Shown: piece by piece, positions 7,915 to 19,329 of the stretch
Layout: the number at the start of each line of letters is the position of its first letter
How positions within the stretch are numbered: the first letter of the stretch is position 1
Virus record (IMG/VR): IMGVR_UViG_3300032223_001961
Span: 1 to 22,594 of that record
Source of the DNA: a virus
DNA length: 22,594 nucleotides
Strand: one strand, 5' to 3'
The notes under the pieces: generated by a model
Told to the model about the DNA's origin: nothing
Database searches by the model: none
The model's input: only the letters and a program-made list of their open reading frames with translations
Translations under genes and position numbers: made by a program

Positions 7915-7943
7915 AATTTAACACACTCAACGAGTTGTGTCAA
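7915..7943 (-). promoter_or_regulatory. Strong sigma70-like promoter with an operator-like dyad
   Basis: On the minus strand TTGACA (7943-7938) is followed after 17 bases by TAAATT (7920-7915). The -35 element overlaps the stop of the VWA gene. Between the two elements, ACACAACTC and GAGTGTGT form an imperfect dyad around GTT, well placed for a repressor. The predicted start near 7908 gives a leader of about 48 bases with AAGGA before the ATG. Confidence 0.65.
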
Positions 7944-10018
7944 TCCTTTTGTAAAAACATTTTATTAATAGTTTTAGCAATATCAAAAATGTTTTGAATA
8001 TTCACAAATGATGCATTTGTTCCATACATTGTTTTGAACATATTACGAATTTTAACATCATATTCGTCCGTAGATAGACGTGAAAATGCATATTGTTCTT
8101 TAATAAAATAACTCAAAATTTTATATCCACGATCACGAATTTTATTGACCTGTTGACGTGTATGTGCTGCCGCAGGTTCTCCAGAATAAGAAATAGAATT
8201 TCCATTCACATCCGTATAACTCATCGTCGGTTGACCGTCACTAAAGTTCAAAAAATAGAAATTTTCGTCAGTCGATACCGGCAATTCATTCATGATTGAT
8301 TCAAAACAAAGACCTTCAGGAGTACATCCATGTGGACGAATATATTTGAATAGATTCTTCACTTTACTAATTTTATCAGTATTTGAATCATATGCAATAA
8401 CCACATATGGTAATTCAGTTCCTTTAGAAGCGATAAAAGTTGTTCTAAAACTAACGCTCACACGTAGATTGTCAATCATTGATGCAGCTTTACAAATAGC
8501 AACTACAGCAGTCATGGTGGATAACCACTTTTGTCCTCCCATACTGGAACTTGCATCTACACTGATATGTATATATGATTTGTTATATTTATCCACGTTC
8601 AATGAGTAGAAAATATTTTCATTTTCAAAACTCAATTCGGATAAAATACGCTTATCCACCCGGCCAGTAGGCTTACGCATATACTTTGTAGTGTTACTTT
8701 CATTACGTAATTGTAATTTTCTACCCAATACAGTCCCTTTGACAATTCCCAAATTAACAGCACCAGTAACACTGCGATCCGCGACTGGGAGGTGTTTCAT
8801 GCCATCTTTGGCAGTCAATGGAAACAATTCATTACTAATCAATTCATAGTTCATTCGTTTGACAACGATGCAATCTACACTATGAGAACCATCTGCTTTA
8901 ATGTAAGTAGATCCCACAGTTGACAATATAATACCTGACTTGTCAATAGAATCCAAAATTTTCTTTTCTTTAGCAGACACCTTCTTCTTTTTAACGTTTC
9001 CTTCCAAAAAATCTTTTTGTTTTTCGAGAGCCTTTTTGATTTTGGCAATCTTGTTATCAGAGATTTTTGGGTCACTTCCAATATTGTCTTTAACAATGTC
9101 CTCTTTGGAAGATGTGACTTGATTGGTATCACCACCAAGAACATCGTCTATAGATTCGTCTTGTTTATCGGATTCAACGGAATCTTCCGATTTCTCCTCA
9201 GATTTATTTTCTGTAGAAGACTTCTTGGAAGCATTCTTATTGTCTGACGATGGAGATGGTGACTTTGCTCCATCGGATTGATGTTCCGTTATATTTTTTA
9301 AAATAATTTCACACACTTCGTATGCAAGATACAATCGATCTTTTGGAGTTGTTAACCTATCAATATTTGATAAATTGATAAGTTTTGCAATCTCACGTAG
9401 ATTCGGCAAAGCTTCAAGATCTGTATTGATATTATTAAAATTAATAATACGAGCTTCGTAACTTGCAATGCTTGGAGTTCTGTATAATTGACTCTTCAAC
9501 ATTTCGTCAATTTTAACACTATTGAAATACGTGTCATACAATGCAGTATAATATCCACGATAACCAGGAGCATTTTTATATACAAACTGATCGATGTAAC
9601 GATCCTCAATATAGTTGAGGATATGCTTTACAAAACCATGAATATCTTCTTTTGAAATTTGCAGTTTCTCGGCATATTTATACAAATTACTTGGGACTTT
9701 CTGCCAGATCGTTTTGAAAATATCAAAATCAGACAAGATGACGTGACTACCTTCGTGTAGAGCAAGTCCCACGGCGGTATCAAAATCATCTTTTTTTACA
9801 ATGTCGGAAGAGATATACACAGATTTTCCATCCGTAGAATTGTCTCCCCCGTCATTAAAAAATACAGGAATATTTTTGTTGGTCAAAATATGAACAAAGT
9901 TACTAATAGCTCTACGAGCCATAGACAATTTGATCAGATCTGTATTAATTGCATTTTGATCATCAATTTCATCAAATTCAAAATCATCCAACCAATAATC
10001 ACTATATGTCGTATTCAT
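7940..10018 (-). CDS. Metallopeptidase-like/VWA protein, partner of the MoxR-type ATPase
   Basis: This 692-residue protein has three parts. Residues 1-250 contain a zinc-metallopeptidase-like HExxH (HEGSH at 88-92) followed by NYIEDRYID at 135-143, whose Glu could be the third ligand; this layout also occurs in CobT-type proteins. Residues 250-360 are a Ser/Lys/Glu/Asp-rich linker. The C-terminus is a von Willebrand factor A domain with a complete MIDAS: DASSS at 488-492, the Thr of GCTPEG at 566 and the Asp of FSDG at 594. It begins 10 bases after the AAA+ gene ends, the classic MoxR-VWA pair arrangement, in which the ATPase and metal-binding VWA protein act together as a chaperone or remodelling machine. 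The target is unknown. Confidence 0.8.
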   Translation of the reverse strand: MNTTYSDYWLDDFEFDEIDDQNAINTDLIKLSMARRAISNFVHILTNKNIPVFFNDGGDNSTDGKSVYISSDIVKKDDFDTAVGLALHEGSHVILSDFDIFKTIWQKVPSNLYKYAEKLQISKEDIHGFVKHILNYIEDRYIDQFVYKNAPGYRGYYTALYDTYFNSVKIDEMLKSQLYRTPSIASYEARIINFNNINTDLEALPNLREIAKLINLSNIDRLTTPKDRLYLAYEVCEIILKNITEHQSDGAKSPSPSSDNKNASKKSSTENKSEEKSEDSVESDKQDESIDDVLGGDTNQVTSSKEDIVKDNIGSDPKISDNKIAKIKKALEKQKDFLEGNVKKKKVSAKEKKILDSIDKSGIILSTVGSTYIKADGSHSVDCIVVKRMNYELISNELFPLTAKDGMKHLPVADRSVTGAVNLGIVKGTVLGRKLQLRNESNTTKYMRKPTGRVDKRILSELSFENENIFYSLNVDKYNKSYIHISVDASSSMGGQKWLSTMTAVVAICKAASMIDNLRVSVSFRTTFIASKGTELPYVVIAYDSNTDKISKVKNLFKYIRPHGCTPEGLCFESIMNELPVSTDENFYFLNFSDGQPTMSYTDVNGNSISYSGEPAAAHTRQQVNKIRDRGYKILSYFIKEQYAFSRLSTDEYDVKIRNMFKTMYGTNASFVNIQNIFDIAKTINKMFLQKD

Positions 10019-10028
10019 ATATTTGAGA

Positions 10029-10967
10029 TTAAAATGGAGGTTGAGAATTGTTGAGAGGATCGTTAATTAGATTGTTAGGAGCGGTATTTGGAATGTATTT
10101 TTGAACAACCTGTTTCATATAGGTACGTTCACTGTCAACTCCACCGTCATTCATGAAATTTGGATAAATAGCAGTTTCTGCGATTTCATTCAAATCAAAT
10201 CCATCCAAGATAAGTTCGCTCATTTCAACTGTAGAACGAGTAGGAATGAAATTGGTGATCTTACTGTCTTCAGACTTGATTTGTTCACGGGTAAGATTAG
10301 CAATTTCACATACAGCCGAAAGAATTTTTAGTGAAGATTCATCGGTAATAGAAAAACGAGACTTCAAATATTCAAATTCCGTTTTGTAATCCATAGGAGT
10401 CATTTCAATCTTGATCGGAAAACGACTCATTAGTGCTCGATCCATAACGCGGGTAGCAGTATATTCATTGCCAATGTTAGCGGTTCCAATAAAACACACA
10501 CCTTCTGCAACCTTAACAACTTCACTGTCTTGCTTTTCGTCCAGACGCAAATAACGTTGAATATCATCCAATACAGTCATCAACACATTCCATGCATCAT
10601 GGTGGGCACGGCTAATTTCATCAAGAAGAATTACTGCGTTAGGGGTCTTGATTGCCTTAACAAAGGTAGATTCACTAAAAAATGTTCCGGCATCTTTATT
10701 ATAATGCGTGTTACCAATAAGTGACGAACGTGCATCTTGCATGGCACCAAGATTGAAATAAAAATATGGACGATCCAATGCTTGAGTAACAGACTGTGCG
10801 GCAAGCGTCTTGCCACATCCAGTGGGTCCAACAATTAAAATGTTCTTTCCACGATACACAGATCGCACCAAATACTTCCATTTGGTGTTATCAATTACCA
10901 GTTCCTTTGGTTTGAGTGTATGACTTTCTTTGATTAAGGATTTGATGTCGATGTTCTTTTTCTTCAT
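10029..10967 (-). CDS. MoxR/CobS-type AAA+ ATPase
   Basis: This 312-residue AAA+ protein has Walker A GPTGCGKT at 47-54, Walker B ILLDEIS at about 113-119, sensor 1 in GTANIG around 164 and an arginine in ALMSRF at about 182. The short N-terminus and overall length match MoxR/CobS-type ATPases, which form rings and work with a VWA partner. Phages of the T4 group have been annotated with CobS-like ATPases; a role in cobalt chelation is not implied. The gene follows a strong terminator and a candidate promoter, and the VWA gene comes straight after it, so the two probably form a transcription unit. No clear Shine-Dalgarno precedes the ATG. Confidence 0.85.
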   Translation of the reverse strand: MKKKNIDIKSLIKESHTLKPKELVIDNTKWKYLVRSVYRGKNILIVGPTGCGKTLAAQSVTQALDRPYFYFNLGAMQDARSSLIGNTHYNKDAGTFFSESTFVKAIKTPNAVILLDEISRAHHDAWNVLMTVLDDIQRYLRLDEKQDSEVVKVAEGVCFIGTANIGNEYTATRVMDRALMSRFPIKIEMTPMDYKTEFEYLKSRFSITDESSLKILSAVCEIANLTREQIKSEDSKITNFIPTRSTVEMSELILDGFDLNEIAETAIYPNFMNDGGVDSERTYMKQVVQKYIPNTAPNNLINDPLNNSQPPF

Positions 10968-11761: not shown

Positions 11762-12544
11762 TCAAAAATACAAATTATCAATGTTATTTTCAATTGTTAT
11801 TTGTTCTATTTCTTCAACATAAGAACCAACCTTTGGATAGGGTAATATTGGATGTTTTAATGATTTTACGAGCTTTTTGTTCTCTATTTTTTTGGAAATG
11901 AACTTAATATAACGGTGTTTACCACTTTCTTTCTTTCTCCAAAAAGTCTTTCCTATCTTTATTTTTAACTTATCAACACCGTGACTTCCCCACTTGGAAT
12001 ATACACTTCGGCTATGTATCCACTTGTAATCAGGCGGACCTGTCAAACTAACACTATAATTAGGCATCAACGCAATATCCACATAATTGTCTCCTTGATA
12101 CAAAAATCCAGTTGCTTGATAGATTTTGCCTACATGTCCAACTTCACTGTCTGCATAACTTAATATGCACTTTATATCTGGGTAATCCTTGTTTATACAA
12201 CGAAACGATTCGGCAATACAATAACTCTCAATATTTTTACCATAACCATCTTCAATCCAAAGACGAGTCAATTCTAATACATTATCATTGGTTAATTTAC
12301 TACTGATGCTGTTACTGCAATTTCTGCCTACGGAATTTCCATAGACTAGAACCCCAATCAATTTAGAATTAAATCCACCAAAAAATGTACTTTCAGTGTA
12401 TTCTTTATAATAAACACCATATGCAACACTACACAAAGTCCATTTGTGGGTATAATGATTCTTTTCTATTAATTGTCTAGCTATTTTCTTATCAATCGGT
12501 TTTAAATAAACCAATGAGGTATCACAGTAAGATTGTTCCATCAT
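11762..12544 (-). CDS. Mom-like adenine modification protein (GNAT-related fold)
   Basis: This 260-residue protein resembles the phage Mu Mom family, which converts adenine in DNA to N6-carbamoylmethyladenine and so protects it from restriction. The visible signature is a HYTH segment near residue 30, then VLELTRLWIEDGYGKNIES (about 89-107), and SYADSEVGHVGKIYQATGF (about 129-147). This SRL-SYAD-GHxGxxYQA pattern is the family hallmark. The C-terminal 90 residues are basic and may bind DNA. No Com-like translational activator is seen next to it. A candidate promoter overlaps the end of the PAS gene. Two adjacent ATG codons (12544 and 12541) could start it. Membership is probable; the actual modification is not shown. 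Confidence 0.75.
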   Translation of the reverse strand: MMEQSYCDTSLVYLKPIDKKIARQLIEKNHYTHKWTLCSVAYGVYYKEYTESTFFGGFNSKLIGVLVYGNSVGRNCSNSISSKLTNDNVLELTRLWIEDGYGKNIESYCIAESFRCINKDYPDIKCILSYADSEVGHVGKIYQATGFLYQGDNYVDIALMPNYSVSLTGPPDYKWIHSRSVYSKWGSHGVDKLKIKIGKTFWRKKESGKHRYIKFISKKIENKKLVKSLKHPILPYPKVGSYVEEIEQITIENNIDNLYF

Positions 12545-13236: not shown

Positions 13237-14295
13237 TTACAGTTTGAATCCGTCAAATGCACCTTCACTGATGGTGTTATCTACACCCTTTACATAACTA
13301 CTCAATACAGTTTCTTGAGGAGCAACTTGTAATTTCTTACTATCGTAATAACTATCCAGCCAACCGGCCAACGGATTTGTCTTAACATTTGGATACAATT
13401 TCTTGTAACCAATGCTGGTTAATCTGTTGTTGGCAAGCCATTCAATATAGTTTTTTAGACTTTCAGAGGTCAACCCAACAAGATTTCCCTTGCTGAATAG
13501 GTAATCTGCCCAATCCTTTTCAGCTTCTACGGCAATTTCATATGCCTTGTATACTTTGTCTTCGTTCTTTTTAACAATTTCTTGGAATCCTTCATCGGCG
13601 TTATTTGCCCAATTCTTCATGATGTTTTGAGTGATTGCCACGTGCAGATTTTCATCACGACTAATGAACTTGATAATTTTGCTATTACCTTCCATTTTTC
13701 CACGATAACCAAAATAGAAACTACAAGCAAATGATACATAAAAAATCAACCCTTCGGTAATTTGAGTTGCCAACACAGCATCAAATAATTGTTGTCTTAC
13801 GTCATCTGACGGAGTCAACAGTTCATCATATTTTTTACTAATAGCATTAGCACGATTCACAATTTCTTGATCTTCCAATATGCTATCAAAGAACTTTGTT
13901 GCGTCAGGATACACGTTATTTAAAATATAGGTGTAACTGTTGCTGTGAATGGTTTCAAAGAAACTCCAAGTATTCATACAAATTTCCAATTCACTATTGG
14001 TAACATGTTTCATCAACTCATGAATGCTGCGACTCAACATACTGTCGGTCATGGTCTGAAACTTAAGATTGCTATCAAACACAAATCGTTCTTCGTCAGA
14101 TAGATTTTTGTAGTCGCTGATATCTTTGACCAACGAAACTTCTTGGGGTCTCCAAAAGAAATTTAATTGTTGATCGTAAAGTTCATAGAACTTAGGATAT
14201 CGTATCTTATCATAACGTTGTAATGACAGATCCTCTCCCAAAAACATGGGATTTCTTAATTGATCTATGTTCTTTTTATTTAATACAGTTTTCAT
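13237..14295 (-). CDS. nrdB: Class Ia ribonucleotide reductase, small (radical) subunit
   Basis: This 352-residue protein houses the diiron-tyrosyl radical used by NrdA to reduce ribonucleotides. The ligands are visible and in register with E. coli NrdB: Asp84 (MTD), Glu114 and His117 (ETIHS), Tyr121 (SYTYI, the radical tyrosine), Glu181 (EGLIFYVSFACSF), Glu215 and His218 (RDENLH). The start is the ATG at 14295, not the in-frame TTG at 14307, because GGAGG lies 5 bases before it. It follows the NrdA C-half stop by 12 bases and precedes a strong terminator, so it is the last gene of the nrd transcript. It is intact and carries no intein. Confidence 0.96.
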   Translation of the reverse strand: MKTVLNKKNIDQLRNPMFLGEDLSLQRYDKIRYPKFYELYDQQLNFFWRPQEVSLVKDISDYKNLSDEERFVFDSNLKFQTMTDSMLSRSIHELMKHVTNSELEICMNTWSFFETIHSNSYTYILNNVYPDATKFFDSILEDQEIVNRANAISKKYDELLTPSDDVRQQLFDAVLATQITEGLIFYVSFACSFYFGYRGKMEGNSKIIKFISRDENLHVAITQNIMKNWANNADEGFQEIVKKNEDKVYKAYEIAVEAEKDWADYLFSKGNLVGLTSESLKNYIEWLANNRLTSIGYKKLYPNVKTNPLAGWLDSYYDSKKLQVAPQETVLSSYVKGVDNTISEGAFDGFKL

Positions 14296-14307
14296 ATATA
14301 CCTCCAA

Positions 14308-15396
14308 TTATAGAGCACATGCTCCACCAGCACAACCTTGTTCTTCAACAATAGGTTGTTTTATTTCGTTAGTTTTATTTTCCATTGCAGTTTGCTTATC
14401 ACCATCGTCAGTATTAGCATAATATAGATTCTTCAATCCATACTTGTATGCCAACAAAATATCTTTAATAACAACTTCAACAGGAACCTTATTCTTTTCG
14501 TACCTAGACGGAATATAGTAAGTATTGACACTGATACTCATATCCGTGAACTTTTGAATGGCCGCAGCAACTTTCAAATAACCTTCGTTGCTTGGCATGT
14601 CAAATGCAAATGTATAATTTTCCTTATACTTGTCAATTCCGGGCACAACCACAGGCAATATGTTTGATTTGCTGCCCTTGAAACTGATCGCACTACGAGG
14701 GGGTTCAATTCCGTTGGTACTGCTTTGAATTACGCTACTTGATTCCACAGGCATACAAGCAGTGAGGGTACTATGACGCATTCCATACTTTTTGATATCT
14801 TCACGAAGAGATTCCCAATCGCAATGTAATTTTTCAGTAATAAATTCGTCAACGTCTCTTTTGTATGTATCAATTGGAAGAATTCCTTGGCTAAATTTGG
14901 TTCTGTCAAACTTCTCACATTTACCAAGTTCTTTGGCCATTTGAACACTAGCCTTTATCAAATAATAACTAGTCTTTTCCATCCAAGAGGCAACCAAGTT
15001 TGGAGCTTTCTTGTCCCAATACTTGAGTCCTTCTTTAGCCAACAATGCTGCCAAATTGCTTACACCTACACCCAAACTACGACGCTTCTTAGCGAAATTC
15101 TCAGCAGCAGGCACAAAGTAATTTTGATGTTCAATCAGTGCATCCAACATTCTGACAATAATATCACATACACTTTCCATTTCGGTATCATCCTTGATTT
15201 CCAACCAATTTAATGCTGCCAAAATACAAACGCCAATTTCTCCATTTGGATCGTTAACGTCGTTAATTGCGATTAGTGGATGATTGACCTCAAGGCAATT
15301 ATGAACTAATATATTATTTGCATAAAAATTATGATTATCTTTTACAGTAATGTCATAGACATCCGATTTTTCTTTTATTTTTTTAATTTTTAACAT
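14308..15396 (-). CDS. nrdA: Ribonucleotide reductase large subunit, C-terminal half with split-intein C-fragment
   Basis: This 362-residue protein begins with 33 residues of intein C-fragment and continues as NrdA from Cys34. The extein begins CLEVNHPL, so the thiyl-radical cysteine (C439 in E. coli) and the glutamate E441 are here. Also present are the second redox cysteine (GEIGVCILAALNW), NGIEPPR, the radical-transfer tyrosines (LKNLYYANTDDG) and the C-terminal cysteine pair (GCAGGACAL). It starts 14 bases inside the end of the endonuclease gene, which contains an AGAGGA about 10 bases before the ATG. Joined to the N-half, the enzyme has 433 plus 329 residues, 762 in all, against 761 in E. 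coli. It cannot work without splicing. Confidence 0.95.
   Translation of the reverse strand: MLKIKKIKEKSDVYDITVKDNHNFYANNILVHNCLEVNHPLIAINDVNDPNGEIGVCILAALNWLEIKDDTEMESVCDIIVRMLDALIEHQNYFVPAAENFAKKRRSLGVGVSNLAALLAKEGLKYWDKKAPNLVASWMEKTSYYLIKASVQMAKELGKCEKFDRTKFSQGILPIDTYKRDVDEFITEKLHCDWESLREDIKKYGMRHSTLTACMPVESSSVIQSSTNGIEPPRSAISFKGSKSNILPVVVPGIDKYKENYTFAFDMPSNEGYLKVAAAIQKFTDMSISVNTYYIPSRYEKNKVPVEVVIKDILLAYKYGLKNLYYANTDDGDKQTAMENKTNEIKQPIVEEQGCAGGACAL
15298..15396 (-). other. Split intein C-fragment (33 residues) in NrdA
   Basis: Residues 1-33 (MLKIKKIKEKS to ILVHN) contain intein block F (VYDITVKDNHNFYANN) and block G (ILVHN) with the terminal asparagine that cyclises. The next residue is the +1 cysteine. 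The sequence closely resembles, from memory, the C-fragment of the NrdA-2 split intein described from marine metagenomes. The coding DNA is markedly AT-rich relative to the extein beside it. Confidence 0.93.
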
Positions 15397-16144
15397 GTTT
15401 CAAAAGTCCTCTTTTTAAGTTTAAAATTTTTATTTTTTCATCATCCGAATATAACATGTAATTATTTTTACCATTGTTATACCAATTTCTACCAATTATT
15501 GATTTAGATAAGTTTTCACATCTCGTTTTGTCTCTCTTATCATACACGAAATCAGAATCATTAAAATCAATTTTTCTATTTTTTAATTCACTCTTTAGAT
15601 GTTTTAAAAAACCAATTCTACCCTCGCCGTTGAATCTAAATTTTGTGTAGTTTACAGGTAATTTTTTTGTTTTGCAAAAATTAAACCATTGTCTGAATAT
15701 TAATTTTTTATTAGATTTATAATACTCAATGGCTTCTTCAATTATCTGGGTGTCTGTGTATCCAGAATAATTAGGATTTTTATCTCCAGTTGAAAGTTTT
15801 TTTCGTATTTTAATAAATTTTTTATATTTTTTATTATCTAAAGCGTTTATTATATCTCCACCATCTCCACCTTCCGTTGAATTTAATCCACATTTAAATG
15901 TATCATATTGTTTAATGTAATTTTTTTCTAATTGTTTAGCTTCAATCTCATCGTTACATTCAATTAATATTTTAGATATTATATTTTTAGGTCCATGTTT
16001 TCTGATATGTCTATAGAATTTTGTATCTATACCGCTTAATGCATTTAAAATATGTTTATGTAATCTTTTTTCTAGAGACTTTGACGTATATCCGATATAA
16101 GATTTGTCACAAATAGTATGCATATAGATTATATATTTTTTCAT
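15383..16144 (-). CDS. GIY-YIG homing endonuclease, free-standing, inside the split nrdA locus
   Basis: This 253-residue protein has its GIY-YIG domain at residues 1-95. YIIYMHTICDKSYIGYTS gives the two-part signature (IIY in place of GIY, then YIG). The catalytic arginine is in LEKRLHKH, the glutamate in EAKQLEKNYIKQYD and the asparagine in CGLNSTEGGDGG. A NUMOD3-like GDKNPNYSG follows, then helical DNA-binding regions and a C-terminal WYNNGKNNYML motif common in phage homing enzymes. It would cut nrdA alleles lacking the insertion and drive homing of the cassette. The start has no Shine-Dalgarno and sits 6 bases after a 16-bp hairpin, so translation should be low. Its end overlaps the C-half start by 14 bases. 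Confidence 0.92.
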   Translation of the reverse strand: MKKYIIYMHTICDKSYIGYTSKSLEKRLHKHILNALSGIDTKFYRHIRKHGPKNIISKILIECNDEIEAKQLEKNYIKQYDTFKCGLNSTEGGDGGDIINALDNKKYKKFIKIRKKLSTGDKNPNYSGYTDTQIIEEAIEYYKSNKKLIFRQWFNFCKTKKLPVNYTKFRFNGEGRIGFLKHLKSELKNRKIDFNDSDFVYDKRDKTRCENLSKSIIGRNWYNNGKNNYMLYSDDEKIKILNLKRGLLKHVKN

Positions 16145-16149
16145 ATGAA

Positions 16150-16197
16150 TGAATGGTTTACTTCATATAAGTATGAATCAGTGAAGTAAACCATTCA
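16150..16197 (-). repeat. 16-bp perfect inverted repeat (hairpin) before the endonuclease start
   Basis: Arms 16150-16165 and 16182-16197 are exact complements (GAATGGTTTACTTCA on the plus strand, plus one outer pair) with a 16-base loop. In minus-strand RNA the 3' arm ends 6 bases before the endonuclease ATG and occupies the ribosome-binding region. No U tract follows, so RBS masking or mRNA processing is more likely than termination. Confidence 0.75.
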
Positions 16198-16203
16198 ATT
16201 ATT

Positions 16204-17820
16204 TTATATAATATCTAATATATCCGATTCATTTAAATCTTTAGCTTTCACATATCCTCGGTTTTTAGTAAAAATTAAATGATCTTCGGTACATTTTATT
16301 TCAAATCCCGTTTCTTCATCAATAATTTCTATCAAATTCACATCAATTCCGGTTATATTTGAATTTAAAACTTCTTTATAAGAAATTTCTTGAGTGTTTA
16401 TATCCTTTGACAATACACTTATGCTTTTATTTTGTTTAAATATTTCGTCTAGTTCTTTCATTGACAATTTCATCGGAATATTATCAACGATACAAGATAC
16501 TTGAGTGTCTGGATGTAAACAAAGATTGCTTGTATCTACTTGATCAAGCCAACTACCATGTTCATTTGCATGATCCACAAACATTGTATAAATTCTACCA
16601 GTTTCAAGACGTTCTTTTGCAAGCAATCCCATCAGTTCTCTTGCAGGAATCTTTTTCTTAAATTTGATATTTTTGTTGGCCTCTGCCTTTTCATACAATT
16701 CTTTGAAATTTGGCAATCCAAAATTATTCCAAAGACTTGGGCATTCATGATAACTGAACAGTGTCACATCCTTATTTTGGAGGAATCGTTCAAAAATTAA
16801 TTTATCTAACCCAATGCAATAGTCTAGTTTACGAACGCGATTGTCATCTGTTCCTGCATTGTTTTTCAACACAAGAATGTCCATAATATCGTAATGGAAC
16901 CAAGCGAAATTTACAGTAGCACTACCACCACGAATTCCGTTTTGATGACAACTCTTTACAGTGGATTCAAATGCTTTACTAAATGGAATTGGTCCTGTGT
17001 GTATCACTTCACCGTTCCTAATAGGAGCATTTGTAGCACGCAATCGGCTCAAGTTTAATCCAATACCGTAACGACTTGCAGTTGCAAATCCTACAGCACT
17101 ATTGTTAGCAAATATACTGCGTAACGTATCGTCAACGGTAAACAATGAGCAACTTGCATAACTCTTCATAACAGAACGAACGCCTGCCATGATTGGGGTG
17201 GGTAAGTTAATTTTATGTTTACTGAAGTATGTGTATGCCTTCTTTACATAATCAAGACGATTCTCCTTATAATCTTTAAAGAATGTCATTGCAATCAACA
17301 TATATGCAAACTGTGGAGTTTCGTATATTTTCTTAGTTGATCTGTTTTGAATCAAGTATTTGTCACACAATTGCTTGATTCCAGCATATGTAAAATTCAA
17401 ATCTCTATCATGTTTTAGAAATTCATCAATTTTGTCAAATTCTTGTTTTGTATACCATTCTAAAATTTCCCCGTCGTATACCAAATTGGATACATTTTCC
17501 TTGACAAGATCATACAATTTAGGCGGATTTTTACCTCCCCACACTTCTTTACGAAGATGATAATTTAACAATCGTGAGGCAACATATTGATAATTTGGCT
17601 TTTCTTCGCTAATCAAATTTGCCGCAGCTTCAATCAACATACCGTGTATATCTTTGGAAGCCATGCCATCAAAAAACGACAAATGTGCATTCATTGCAAC
17701 TTCTTCAAAACTAACATTTTTTACGTTTTCAGTTGCCCATTGCAATATTTTGTTGATTTTGTCTGCGTTAAACTTTTCAACTTTTCCACTACGCTTTTTA
17801 ATAAAAATTTCTTTATTCAT
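16204..17820 (-). CDS. nrdA: Ribonucleotide reductase large subunit, N-terminal half with split-intein N-fragment
   Basis: Of 538 residues, 1-433 are NrdA and 434-538 are intein N-fragment. The start of the protein is an ATP-cone (IFIKKRSGKVEKFNADKIN to about residue 95), the allosteric activity domain. The barrel follows, with redox cysteine Cys224 (SYASCSLF), GIGLNLSRLRA, a GGSATVNFAWFHYDIMDILVLK-like stretch and ending VDTSNL. The asparagine of the catalytic N-x-C-x-E motif is on this fragment; the cysteine and glutamate are on the other. The gene follows a terminator after the helicase; no clear promoter or Shine-Dalgarno is visible. It is class I NrdA, interrupted by a known type of element and not a decayed gene. 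Confidence 0.95.
   Translation of the reverse strand: MNKEIFIKKRSGKVEKFNADKINKILQWATENVKNVSFEEVAMNAHLSFFDGMASKDIHGMLIEAAANLISEEKPNYQYVASRLLNYHLRKEVWGGKNPPKLYDLVKENVSNLVYDGEILEWYTKQEFDKIDEFLKHDRDLNFTYAGIKQLCDKYLIQNRSTKKIYETPQFAYMLIAMTFFKDYKENRLDYVKKAYTYFSKHKINLPTPIMAGVRSVMKSYASCSLFTVDDTLRSIFANNSAVGFATASRYGIGLNLSRLRATNAPIRNGEVIHTGPIPFSKAFESTVKSCHQNGIRGGSATVNFAWFHYDIMDILVLKNNAGTDDNRVRKLDYCIGLDKLIFERFLQNKDVTLFSYHECPSLWNNFGLPNFKELYEKAEANKNIKFKKKIPARELMGLLAKERLETGRIYTMFVDHANEHGSWLDQVDTSNLCLHPDTQVSCIVDNIPMKLSMKELDEIFKQNKSISVLSKDINTQEISYKEVLNSNITGIDVNLIEIIDEETGFEIKCTEDHLIFTKNRGYVKAKDLNESDILDII
16207..16521 (-). other. Split intein N-fragment (105 residues) in NrdA
   Basis: The fragment starts at Cys434 (CLHPDTQVSCI, block A). 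It ends with block B-like KCTEDHLIFTKNRGYVKAKDL, holding the TxxH motif, just before the stop. The first residue is the nucleophile for the N-to-S acyl shift. The shape and wording (IIDEETGFEIKC, NRGYVKAKDL) are very close, from memory, to the NrdA-2 N-fragment. No endonuclease domain is included; that function is in the separate GIY-YIG gene. Confidence 0.93.
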
Positions 17821-17931: not shown

Positions 17932-19329
17932 TTACTCTGATTCTTCCTCGTTTGTATTAGAGTTCATGTGAGCGTTCCACTTTCCACCCATCATTTTTTT
18001 GACAAGATTTTCACTCTGATTCATTTCGTTCATGACACTCATACCTTCTCTACTATTTTCAGAGAAAATTTGGATATCACCACAGCCAGCGTTCATTCTG
18101 CTTGGGAATGTTTGTCCATCAGGACCGAAACGATTTTTGATAATATGAATACGAGCAGTATTGCTTACTTTGTCTTGAACTTTACGACTCAAACTCATTA
18201 CGAAATCTGCCGTCATGATCTTACGATACGAATCGGAGATGTTATTTGCCTGAATGATGTCTTCATCCATAGCAGCTCGATTGCTTTGTGAAGCCGTCCA
18301 TATAGGTATCTGCAATTCACCTGCAACTCCACGAAGTTCTTCATAGATACCTCCAGCCTCACTGTAGCTGTTACTGTTACGTTCACTTTGTGAAGGACGT
18401 AAAATGTCAGCATAATCCACAATGATCATGTCAACCTTGGTTCCGAGGGTTTGTATACGTTCAGCATGAAGTTTCAAGCTATGAGCAGACACCGTCTTGA
18501 TTGGGAAATATTTAATAATTAATTTTCCAGGAACTTCTGCAATTTTCTTTTTGACGATATCTATATTGGATCTGATATTCTGGAAATCGATTCCAGTAAA
18601 ACATGCATCATAACGAAGCCCCACGTAGTTTTCATTCAATTCCAACGTGTAATGAAGAACATTTTTTCCTTGTCTCATCGCTTCTGCACCGAGCTTAGCA
18701 AGCAACCAACTCTTTCCACTACCTGCACAAGCAGTAATGACTCCTAGTTCTCCACTGGAGAGACCACCATCCATAATACTATCAATTTCAGACCAGTTTG
18801 TTTTGATAGTCTTTCGTGCCATCATGCTCATACGTTTCTCAATATCAATATCATATTCATGACCGATATTTCGTTCCATACCAGCTTTCATTGCAACATC
18901 AACCACATTCTTGATTTTGTCATATTGACCATTCTTCAAATGATCGACACTTTCCATAATAGCATTTTTAAGTTTCTGGTTCTTACAGAATTCAAGAAAC
19001 TGTTCTTTGATAAATTTTAAATCACTATCAGTGATTTTTTGATAAACTAGTCGCAATTGATCTACCACTGTTTGTTTCAACAACTCATTTTCAATACTAT
19101 CTACCTTTACTTTAAAAACAGCAAGAGTAGGCAGTTCCTTGTATCCTAAGAAATAACTCAACGTTTCTTTAACGATAAATTGATGAGCATCAGTTTCAAA
19201 TGACTCTGGCTCAATAATATCACTAATTCTTTCAATAAACGTTTTATCGCTCACAAGTGCACTGATGCACTTGGTTTGAAAGTCTGAACCGAATTTCTTC
19301 AGATTATCCACAATGTATTTTTCACTCAT
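17932..19329 (-). CDS. 41: Replicative DNA helicase, DnaB/gp41 family
   Basis: This 465-residue protein has an N-terminal helical domain to about residue 150, then a RecA-like motor. Walker A is ACAGSGKS at 200-207, Walker B MIIVDYADIL at 301-310, and the DnaB-type segment WTASQSNR and HIIKNRFGPDGQTFP follow. It unwinds DNA ahead of the fork as a hexamer, in T4 with the gp61 primase and loader gp59, neither of which is in this window. T4-type gp41 genes elsewhere can carry split inteins at the P-loop; here the P-loop is uninterrupted. The 72-base gap before it holds two short stem-loops (ATCTTTG/CAAAGAT and GTATCT/AGATAC) and no Shine-Dalgarno. Confidence 0.93.
   Translation of the reverse strand: MSEKYIVDNLKKFGSDFQTKCISALVSDKTFIERISDIIEPESFETDAHQFIVKETLSYFLGYKELPTLAVFKVKVDSIENELLKQTVVDQLRLVYQKITDSDLKFIKEQFLEFCKNQKLKNAIMESVDHLKNGQYDKIKNVVDVAMKAGMERNIGHEYDIDIEKRMSMMARKTIKTNWSEIDSIMDGGLSSGELGVITACAGSGKSWLLAKLGAEAMRQGKNVLHYTLELNENYVGLRYDACFTGIDFQNIRSNIDIVKKKIAEVPGKLIIKYFPIKTVSAHSLKLHAERIQTLGTKVDMIIVDYADILRPSQSERNSNSYSEAGGIYEELRGVAGELQIPIWTASQSNRAAMDEDIIQANNISDSYRKIMTADFVMSLSRKVQDKVSNTARIHIIKNRFGPDGQTFPSRMNAGCGDIQIFSENSREGMSVMNEMNQSENLVKKMMGGKWNAHMNSNTNEEESE

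What the first reader, a model, noticed from the sequence alone, without database searches (positions are those of the whole stretch)
14308..17820. nrdA is a fractured gene: trans-splicing split intein with a GIY-YIG endonuclease gene in between
The sequence shows two ORFs that each hold half of NrdA. The first ends in a 105-residue intein N-fragment, the second starts with a 33-residue intein C-fragment, and a separate 253-codon GIY-YIG gene lies between. Fractured genes with split inteins and free-standing endonucleases are known from marine phage metagenomes (Dassa et al. 2009), and both intein halves resemble NrdA-2 from that work as I remember it. Which endonuclease family accompanies the NrdA-2 allele there is something I cannot confirm, so the GIY-YIG pairing may be less well described. 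Here the full local context (T4-type replisome, NrdB) is visible in one piece.
Basis: partly seen in the sequence, partly recalled or inferred. Interest (0 to 1): 0.85.

Follow-up and report, generated by a model that had tools for sequence, protein, structure and literature searches.

The report
Phage nrdA broken by split intein
A virus of bacteria carries an essential DNA-building enzyme as two separate genes that should be rejoined as proteins by a split self-splicing element, with a DNA-cutting "homing" gene between them; this is a well-preserved new example of a known arrangement, and relatives in cultured phages make its spread directly testable.

Summary
On the minus strand nrdA is two ORFs: NrdA 1-433 plus a 105-aa intein N-fragment, and a 33-aa intein C-fragment plus NrdA 434-762. 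A 253-aa GIY-YIG endonuclease gene lies between them. The +1 Cys aligns with E. coli NrdA C439, the thiyl-radical cysteine. All splicing and nuclease residues are present, and intein and endonuclease are under purifying selection. The arrangement recurs in other contigs (L003, L088, L004, L082), so it is not an assembly error. L002 has lost the endonuclease but is still split. About 75 close relatives have an intact, empty nrdA. The cassette looks mobile: occupancy is patchy on the nrdA tree, synonymous divergence is lower in the cassette than in nrdA, and flanks look co-converted. A family search gave 57 non-redundant loci, all split and nearly all at this RNR cysteine; 29 carry this GIY-YIG family. 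Klebsiella phage KP13-7 carries a homologous cassette; its relative RaK2 has the empty site. Related endonucleases also break nrdA without any intein. This is a new member of the 'fractured gene' kind (Dassa 2009), with a published GIY-YIG precedent (AceL NrdHF). Splicing and cleavage were not shown. Identity with NrdA-2 could not be tested.

The parts
16522..17820 (-). NrdA N-extein, residues 1-433 (ATP cone, all-alpha domain, first part of the barrel; contains the residue aligned with E. coli C225)
   Evidence: Pfam; alignment to E. coli NrdA
16207..16521 (-). Intein N-fragment, 105 aa, Cys1 and TxxH block B (CTEDH), followed by stop codon 16204-16206
   Evidence: PDB match of joined halves to NrdJ-1 E = 4e-19; AF2 model pLDDT 91, top fold hits NrdJ-1 and Npu DnaE N-fragment; C1, T78, H81 invariant in 37 sequences
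16150..16197 (-). RNA hairpin (16-bp stem, 16-nt loop) between the IN stop and the GIY-YIG start; likely control element of the endonuclease gene
   Evidence: -20.3 kcal/mol, z -5.0; also in L003, L004, L082 with an A-U to G-C double change, and a hairpin of different sequence in KP13-7
15383..16144 (-). GIY-YIG homing endonuclease gene, 253 aa (Y7, Y16-I-G18, R27, H31, E73, N88)
   Evidence: Pfam E = 4e-8; catalytic residues invariant in 31 sequences; AF2 model matches I-TevI catalytic domain 1mk0, TM 0.81 by target length, rmsd 1.7; dN/dS 0.10-0.23
15407..15412 (-). Shine-Dalgarno-like AGAGGA for the IC ORF, inside the endonuclease coding sequence, 10 nt before its ATG
   Evidence: sequence; AGGA kept in L002, L003, L004, L082
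15383..15396 (-). 14-nt overlap of the endonuclease stop and the ATG of the IC ORF
15298..15396 (-). Intein C-fragment, 33 aa, ending in the HN dipeptide
   Evidence: Pfam Intein_splicing 125-155, intein_Cterm; dN/dS 0.00-0.05
14311..15297 (-). NrdA C-extein, residues 434-762; first residue aligns with E. coli C439 (thiyl radical Cys), then C462, Y730/Y731 and the C-terminal Cys pair; stop 14308-14310
13237..14307 (-). nrdB, intact (context)
   Evidence: Ribonuc_red_sm E = 2e-60
17932..19329 (-). DnaB/gp41-like replicative helicase, intact here (fractured in some relatives)
   Evidence: phrog_19 E = 2e-76; relatives

Best explanation
A mobile split-intein plus homing-endonuclease cassette sits exactly at the active-site cysteine of a phage class Ia ribonucleotide reductase gene. 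The two nrdA halves are translated separately. The intein halves associate and splice in trans, using Cys1, the block-B Thr/His, the terminal His-Asn and, as +1 nucleophile, the reductase's own thiyl-radical cysteine, to give a 762-residue NrdA. The free-standing GIY-YIG endonuclease cuts nrdA alleles that lack the cassette in co-infecting phages, and repair copies the cassette with flanking DNA, including the +1 Cys codon. A hairpin before the endonuclease gene probably limits its translation. Shown by sequence: anatomy, conserved residues, selection, recurrence, empty alleles, patchy distribution, flank mosaics. Inferred: the splicing reaction, the cleavage specificity and the hairpin's role.
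For: Anatomy and domains. Intein fold and relatives NrdJ-1, Npu DnaE, gp41-1. Endonuclease fold: I-TevI. Same layout in L003, L088, L004, L082; L002 is split without the endonuclease, whose gene appears deleted between copies of AAAAATAATT. All 57 non-redundant family loci are split, 52 with a recognisable NrdA site at the thiyl Cys plus 3 in a class II reductase. Occupied alleles are scattered on the nrdA tree: 5 changes for 6 occupied of 83, at least 4 forced by supported branches. L004-L082 dS is 0.07-0.12 in the cassette against 0.46 and 0.43 in exteins. L004 differs from empty L020 at 11/1000 sites far upstream but 32/399 around the site, Fisher 3e-10. KP13-7 matches empty RaK2 at 98% upstream, 89% just downstream, 98% beyond site 2, and has TGT where RaK2 has CAG at +1. 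All 15 strongest loci found with the endonuclease alone (E <= 3e-17) lie in nrdA. IN and GIY distances correlate (Mantel r = 0.78), more than either does with NrdA (0.55, 0.61).
Against: No experiment shows splicing, cleavage or homing. GIY-YIG genes can persist without homing. Synonymous distances above 1 are saturated and codon composition may differ between cassette and nrdA, so the strongest dS contrast rests on the L004-L082 pair. The L004-L020 divergence also stays at 5% further downstream, so the tract has no clear downstream end. The window's hairpin loop has no T4 late-promoter motif. The record is a 22.6-kb fragment, so a second intact nrdA elsewhere in the genome is not excluded.
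Confidence: 0.88

Rival explanations
1. Gene in pieces without splicing: the NrdA halves assemble non-covalently, as shown for Aeh1 NrdA-a/NrdA-b around mobE, and the intein halves are inactive leftovers.
For: Related GIY-YIG genes break nrdA with no intein in L090-L098; there the break lies downstream of the C439 motif and the halves have unrelated tails. Aeh1 precedent in PMC2988022.
Against: Cys1, T78, H81, HN and +1 Cys are intact; IN and IC have dN/dS 0.09-0.19 and 0.00-0.05; unspliced halves would carry 105 and 33 extra residues directly at the radical cysteine.
Confidence: 0.05
2. Assembly or sequencing artefact: the real gene is contiguous, or the intein is contiguous with a frameshift.
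For: The window is a single metagenomic virus record.
Against: Same split with the same overlap in L003, L088, L004 and L082 from other records; 57 of 57 non-redundant family loci are split, including cultured Klebsiella phage KP13-7 and Yersinia phage TG1.
Confidence: 0.01
3. Dead or non-mobile endonuclease: a splicing split intein, inherited vertically, with a gene between its halves that no longer homes.
For: L002 shows that the endonuclease is dispensable for the split gene; seven family loci have no ORF in the gap.
Against: GIY dN/dS 0.10-0.23 with all catalytic residues kept; patchy occupancy and low cassette dS.
Confidence: 0.06

Closest known systems
Fractured genes with split inteins and free-standing endonucleases (Dassa et al. 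2009, NAR 37:2560)
   Same: Conserved DNA-metabolism enzyme gene broken in two by a split intein with an endonuclease gene between; nrdA loci were among them (7 nrdA and 2 nrdJ according to PMC3653736)
   Different: That paper could not be read here; from memory half of its loci had Vsr-like endonucleases. Here the endonuclease is GIY-YIG.
AceL NrdHF split intein (PMC7891396)
   Same: Phage-like contig, RNR gene, fractured arrangement with a GIY-YIG putative homing endonuclease
   Different: Inserted in the beta-subunit gene nrdHF; class 3 intein with Ala1. The window has Cys1 and the block-B and penultimate histidines, and interrupts the alpha subunit.
NrdJ-1 split intein (PDB 8ubs)
   Same: Closest solved intein by sequence (E = 4e-19) and fold
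   Different: Only distantly similar (34% identity in the fold alignment of the IN part)
Aeromonas phage Aeh1 nrdA-a/mobE/nrdA-b
   Same: Endonuclease gene inserted in nrdA of a T4-like phage; hairpin control of the endonuclease
   Different: mobE is HNH and there is no intein; halves work without splicing (PMC2988022)
Klebsiella phage KP13-7 nrdA (OP617745)
   Same: IN 38%, GIY 37%, IC 65% identical, hairpin in the same place, same active-site loop
   Different: Inserted one codon later (SNLC|CEI); nrdA is also broken at two further places

Membership tests
Class 1 split intein | Cys/Ser at position 1 and TxxH in block B | tested here: met
   C1, T78, H81 invariant in 37 sequences
Class 1 split intein | C-terminal HN (or SN) followed by Cys/Ser/Thr | tested here: met
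   LVHN|C in the window and VHN/IHN/VSN|C in nearly all relatives
Class 1 split intein | Two separate ORFs, broken between the B and F blocks | tested here: met
   57 of 57 non-redundant loci split
Class 1 split intein | Trans-splicing activity | not testable with these tools
   needs co-expression
Fractured gene (Dassa 2009) | Conserved enzyme gene broken by split intein with free-standing endonuclease between | tested here: met
GIY-YIG homing endonuclease | Fold and catalytic Tyr, Tyr, Arg, His, Glu, Asn | tested here: met
GIY-YIG homing endonuclease | Cassette present/absent polymorphism with lateral movement and flank co-conversion | tested here: met
   for relatives of the window, not for the window itself, whose nearest empty relatives are only about 80% identical
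GIY-YIG homing endonuclease | Cleaves the cassette-free allele | not testable with these tools
   needs protein
NrdA-2 allele | Sequence identity with the published NrdA-2 halves | not testable with these tools
   sequence not held
T4-style hairpin with internal late promoter | Stable hairpin before the endonuclease start | tested here: met
T4-style hairpin with internal late promoter | TATAAATA late promoter in the hairpin | tested here: not met
   absent in the window; present in the gap of 10 of 42 relatives against 1.2 expected, but equally often on the other strand
Aeh1-type gene in pieces | No intein at the break | tested here: not met
   intein halves present

The most novel reading that the evidence does not exclude
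One GIY-YIG endonuclease lineage dedicated to the ribonucleotide reductase radical-cysteine loop drives two alternative kinds of broken nrdA: a split-intein cassette that homes as a unit, co-converting the +1 cysteine it needs, and an intein-less gene in pieces. Endonuclease loss leaves a stable endonuclease-free split intein, a route by which free split inteins arise.
Probability: 0.5. Interest if true: 0.62.

Novelty: new member of a known kind. Interest (0 to 1): 0.48.

Why it matters
Fractured genes are mostly known from metagenome fragments, and whether the free-standing endonuclease really mobilises the split intein is, as far as I know, untested. Here the same element is present with its empty alleles, a natural deletion derivative, an intein-less counterpart, and a homologue in a cultured phage whose 96%-identical relatives lack it. 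That makes homing of a split intein directly testable. The intein family is also a source of new natural split inteins with Cys1 and Cys+1 for protein ligation.

Tried and rejected
Group I intron instead of intein in the intein-less loci L090-L098: Rfam found none. Assembly error: rejected by recurrence. Late promoter in the window's hairpin loop: not found; the family-wide enrichment is equal on both strands, so it is only a hint. Bacterial genomes: no relative of the endonuclease found with the alignment patterns. Dassa 2009 and the NrdA-2 sequence: not held. A 31-row alignment was too divergent for a genome scan.
Full report
Observation. The window is a complete 22,594-base IMG/VR virus record. 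On the minus strand, ORF 16204-17820 holds NrdA residues 1-433 followed by a 105-residue intein N-fragment and a stop. ORF 15383-16144 is a 253-residue GIY-YIG protein. ORF 14308-15396 starts with a 33-residue intein C-fragment and continues with NrdA 434-762. The IC ATG overlaps the endonuclease stop by 14 nt, and an AGAGGA lies 10 nt before it inside the endonuclease gene.

Site. Joined exteins align end to end with E. coli NrdA (E = 1e-231). The +1 residue aligns with C439, the thiyl-radical cysteine, so the splicing nucleophile is the reductase's own essential residue. C225 lies in the N-half, and C462, Y730/Y731 and the C-terminal Cys pair in the C-half (the roles of the residues are established knowledge).

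Parts. The joined intein matches NrdJ-1 (E = 4e-19), Spl DnaX and gp41-1. A model of the N-fragment (pLDDT 91) matches NrdJ-1 and the Npu DnaE N-fragment. The endonuclease model matches the I-TevI catalytic domain (1mk0, TM 0.81 by target length, rmsd 1.7). Its Tyr, Tyr, Arg, His, Glu and Asn are invariant in 31 sequences.

Close relatives. Searching with the C-half gave 80 loci. L003, L004 and, from the endonuclease searches, L082 and L088 have the same cassette. About 75 loci have intact nrdA. L002 lacks almost the whole endonuclease gene. What is left is IN, stop, about 70 nt including the endonuclease tail, then the IC ORF in another frame. The junction holds one copy of AAAAATAATT, which in L003 and L004 stands both at the IN stop and in the endonuclease tail. 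The endonuclease is therefore dispensable once the gene is split.

Mobility. On the tree of the N-extein, six occupied rows of 83 need five changes, at least four forced by supported branches, and are no more clustered than shuffled labels. L004 is 99% identical to empty L020, L021 and L080 over the 5' part of nrdA. L004 against L020 shows 11 differences in the 1000 nt far upstream but 32 in the 399 nt around the site (Fisher 3e-10), where L041 is closer. This is what co-conversion would leave, though divergence also stays at 5% further downstream. Between L004 and L082 dS is 0.068 (IN), 0.083 (GIY) and 0.12 (IC) against 0.46 and 0.43 in the exteins. dN/dS of the endonuclease is 0.10-0.23 across pairs. 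The window's own nearest empty relatives are only about 80% identical in nrdA DNA, so its own acquisition cannot be dated.

Wider family. An alignment of N-fragments found 353 relatives, of which the best 80 were kept. With the window set, 57 non-redundant loci have both halves, and none is contiguous. Of these, 52 show an NrdA site either just before or just after the thiyl cysteine, three are in a class II reductase (NPC|C), one is another gene and one is cut off at the site. Twenty-nine carry the same GIY-YIG family, 21 another ORF (LEM-3/I-HmuI-like, HNH, AHH or unclassified) and seven none. Because only the best 80 were kept, these proportions are not unbiased. Searching with the endonuclease alone, all 15 loci with E <= 3e-17 lie in nrdA; weaker hits match the nuclease domain only. 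IN and GIY distances correlate (r = 0.78) better than either does with NrdA.

Intein-less counterpart. In L090-L098 a related endonuclease (35-46%) breaks nrdA with no intein detected and no Rfam intron. The N-half runs past the SNLC motif and, where it is covered, the C-half restarts before the C462 motif. This resembles Aeh1 nrdA-a/mobE/nrdA-b (PMC2988022). These endonucleases form one clade (support 99) beside the split-intein ones.

Cultured phages. Klebsiella phage KP13-7 has IN (38%), GIY (37%, by far the best phage hit) and IC (65%) one codon further on, and a second split intein with an HNH-like ORF later in nrdA. RaK2, K64-1 and Muenster, 96% identical over the matched parts, lack the inserts; phiKp_21 has only the second site. 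KP13-7 and RaK2 share 98% upstream of the site, 89% between the two sites and 98% after. The RaK2 codon CAG at +1 is TGT in KP13-7. Yersinia phage TG1 has a split intein at the window's exact site with an HNH gene, and its 97%-identical relative phiR1-RT has an intact nrdA.

Control. A 16-bp hairpin lies between the IN stop and the endonuclease start in the window and in L003, L004 and L082, with an A-U to G-C double change, and a hairpin of different sequence is in the same place in KP13-7. In T4 and Aeh1 such hairpins hide the ribosome site unless transcription starts at an internal late promoter (PMC2988022). TATAAATA occurs in the gap of 10 of 42 family loci against 1.2 expected, but equally on the other strand, and not in the window. 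Hairpin control is likely; the late-promoter part is open.

Known or new. Fractured genes are known (Dassa 2009, not held; 7 nrdA and 2 nrdJ by PMC3653736). A GIY-YIG gene in a fractured RNR beta-subunit gene is published as AceL NrdHF, with protein trans-splicing assays of that intein (PMC7891396). The window is a new member of that kind. What I did not find described in the library is the site-specific GIY-YIG family at the NrdA radical cysteine, its intein-less branch, the deletion derivative and the cultured pair KP13-7/RaK2. The library holds only part of the literature.

Noticed in passing
L082:5749-8404: nrdA is in three pieces: besides the GIY-YIG cassette a second split intein with a 365-aa HNH-like ORF breaks the C-half after MPVES and before SSVIQSS; KP13-7 and phiKp_21 have a similar second cassette at the corresponding place.
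   Followed up: partly
L082:1341-3222, L071:2642-4601, L057:2652-4684: The gp41-like helicase gene is fractured at its Walker A motif (ACAGSGK|S) by another split intein; Vsr-like ORFs precede the C-half in L071 and L082.
   Followed up: partly
L003:124-972, L047:227-2093: The UvsX/RecA gene is fractured by a further split intein; a Vsr-like ORF lies before it in L047. In the window uvsX and the helicase are intact.
   Followed up: partly
L084:3646-4032: KP13-7 nrdA has a third interruption after residue 293 holding a 128-aa HNH-like ORF with no intein halves seen.
   Followed up: no
L184, L185, L188: The same split-intein family sits before the radical cysteine of a class II (NrdJ-type, NPC motif) reductase.
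   Followed up: no
L087:3719-5654: In Prevotella phage Lak-B2 a related split intein interrupts a helicase-like gene at an ECC motif, about 1.2 kb between the halves.
   Followed up: no
11762-12544: Mom-family protein (Pfam E = 3e-45), suggesting modified phage DNA.
   Followed up: no
7940-10967: CobS/MoxR-like AAA ATPase gene followed by a 692-aa protein with no PHROG match that looks like a VWA-domain protein.
   Followed up: no
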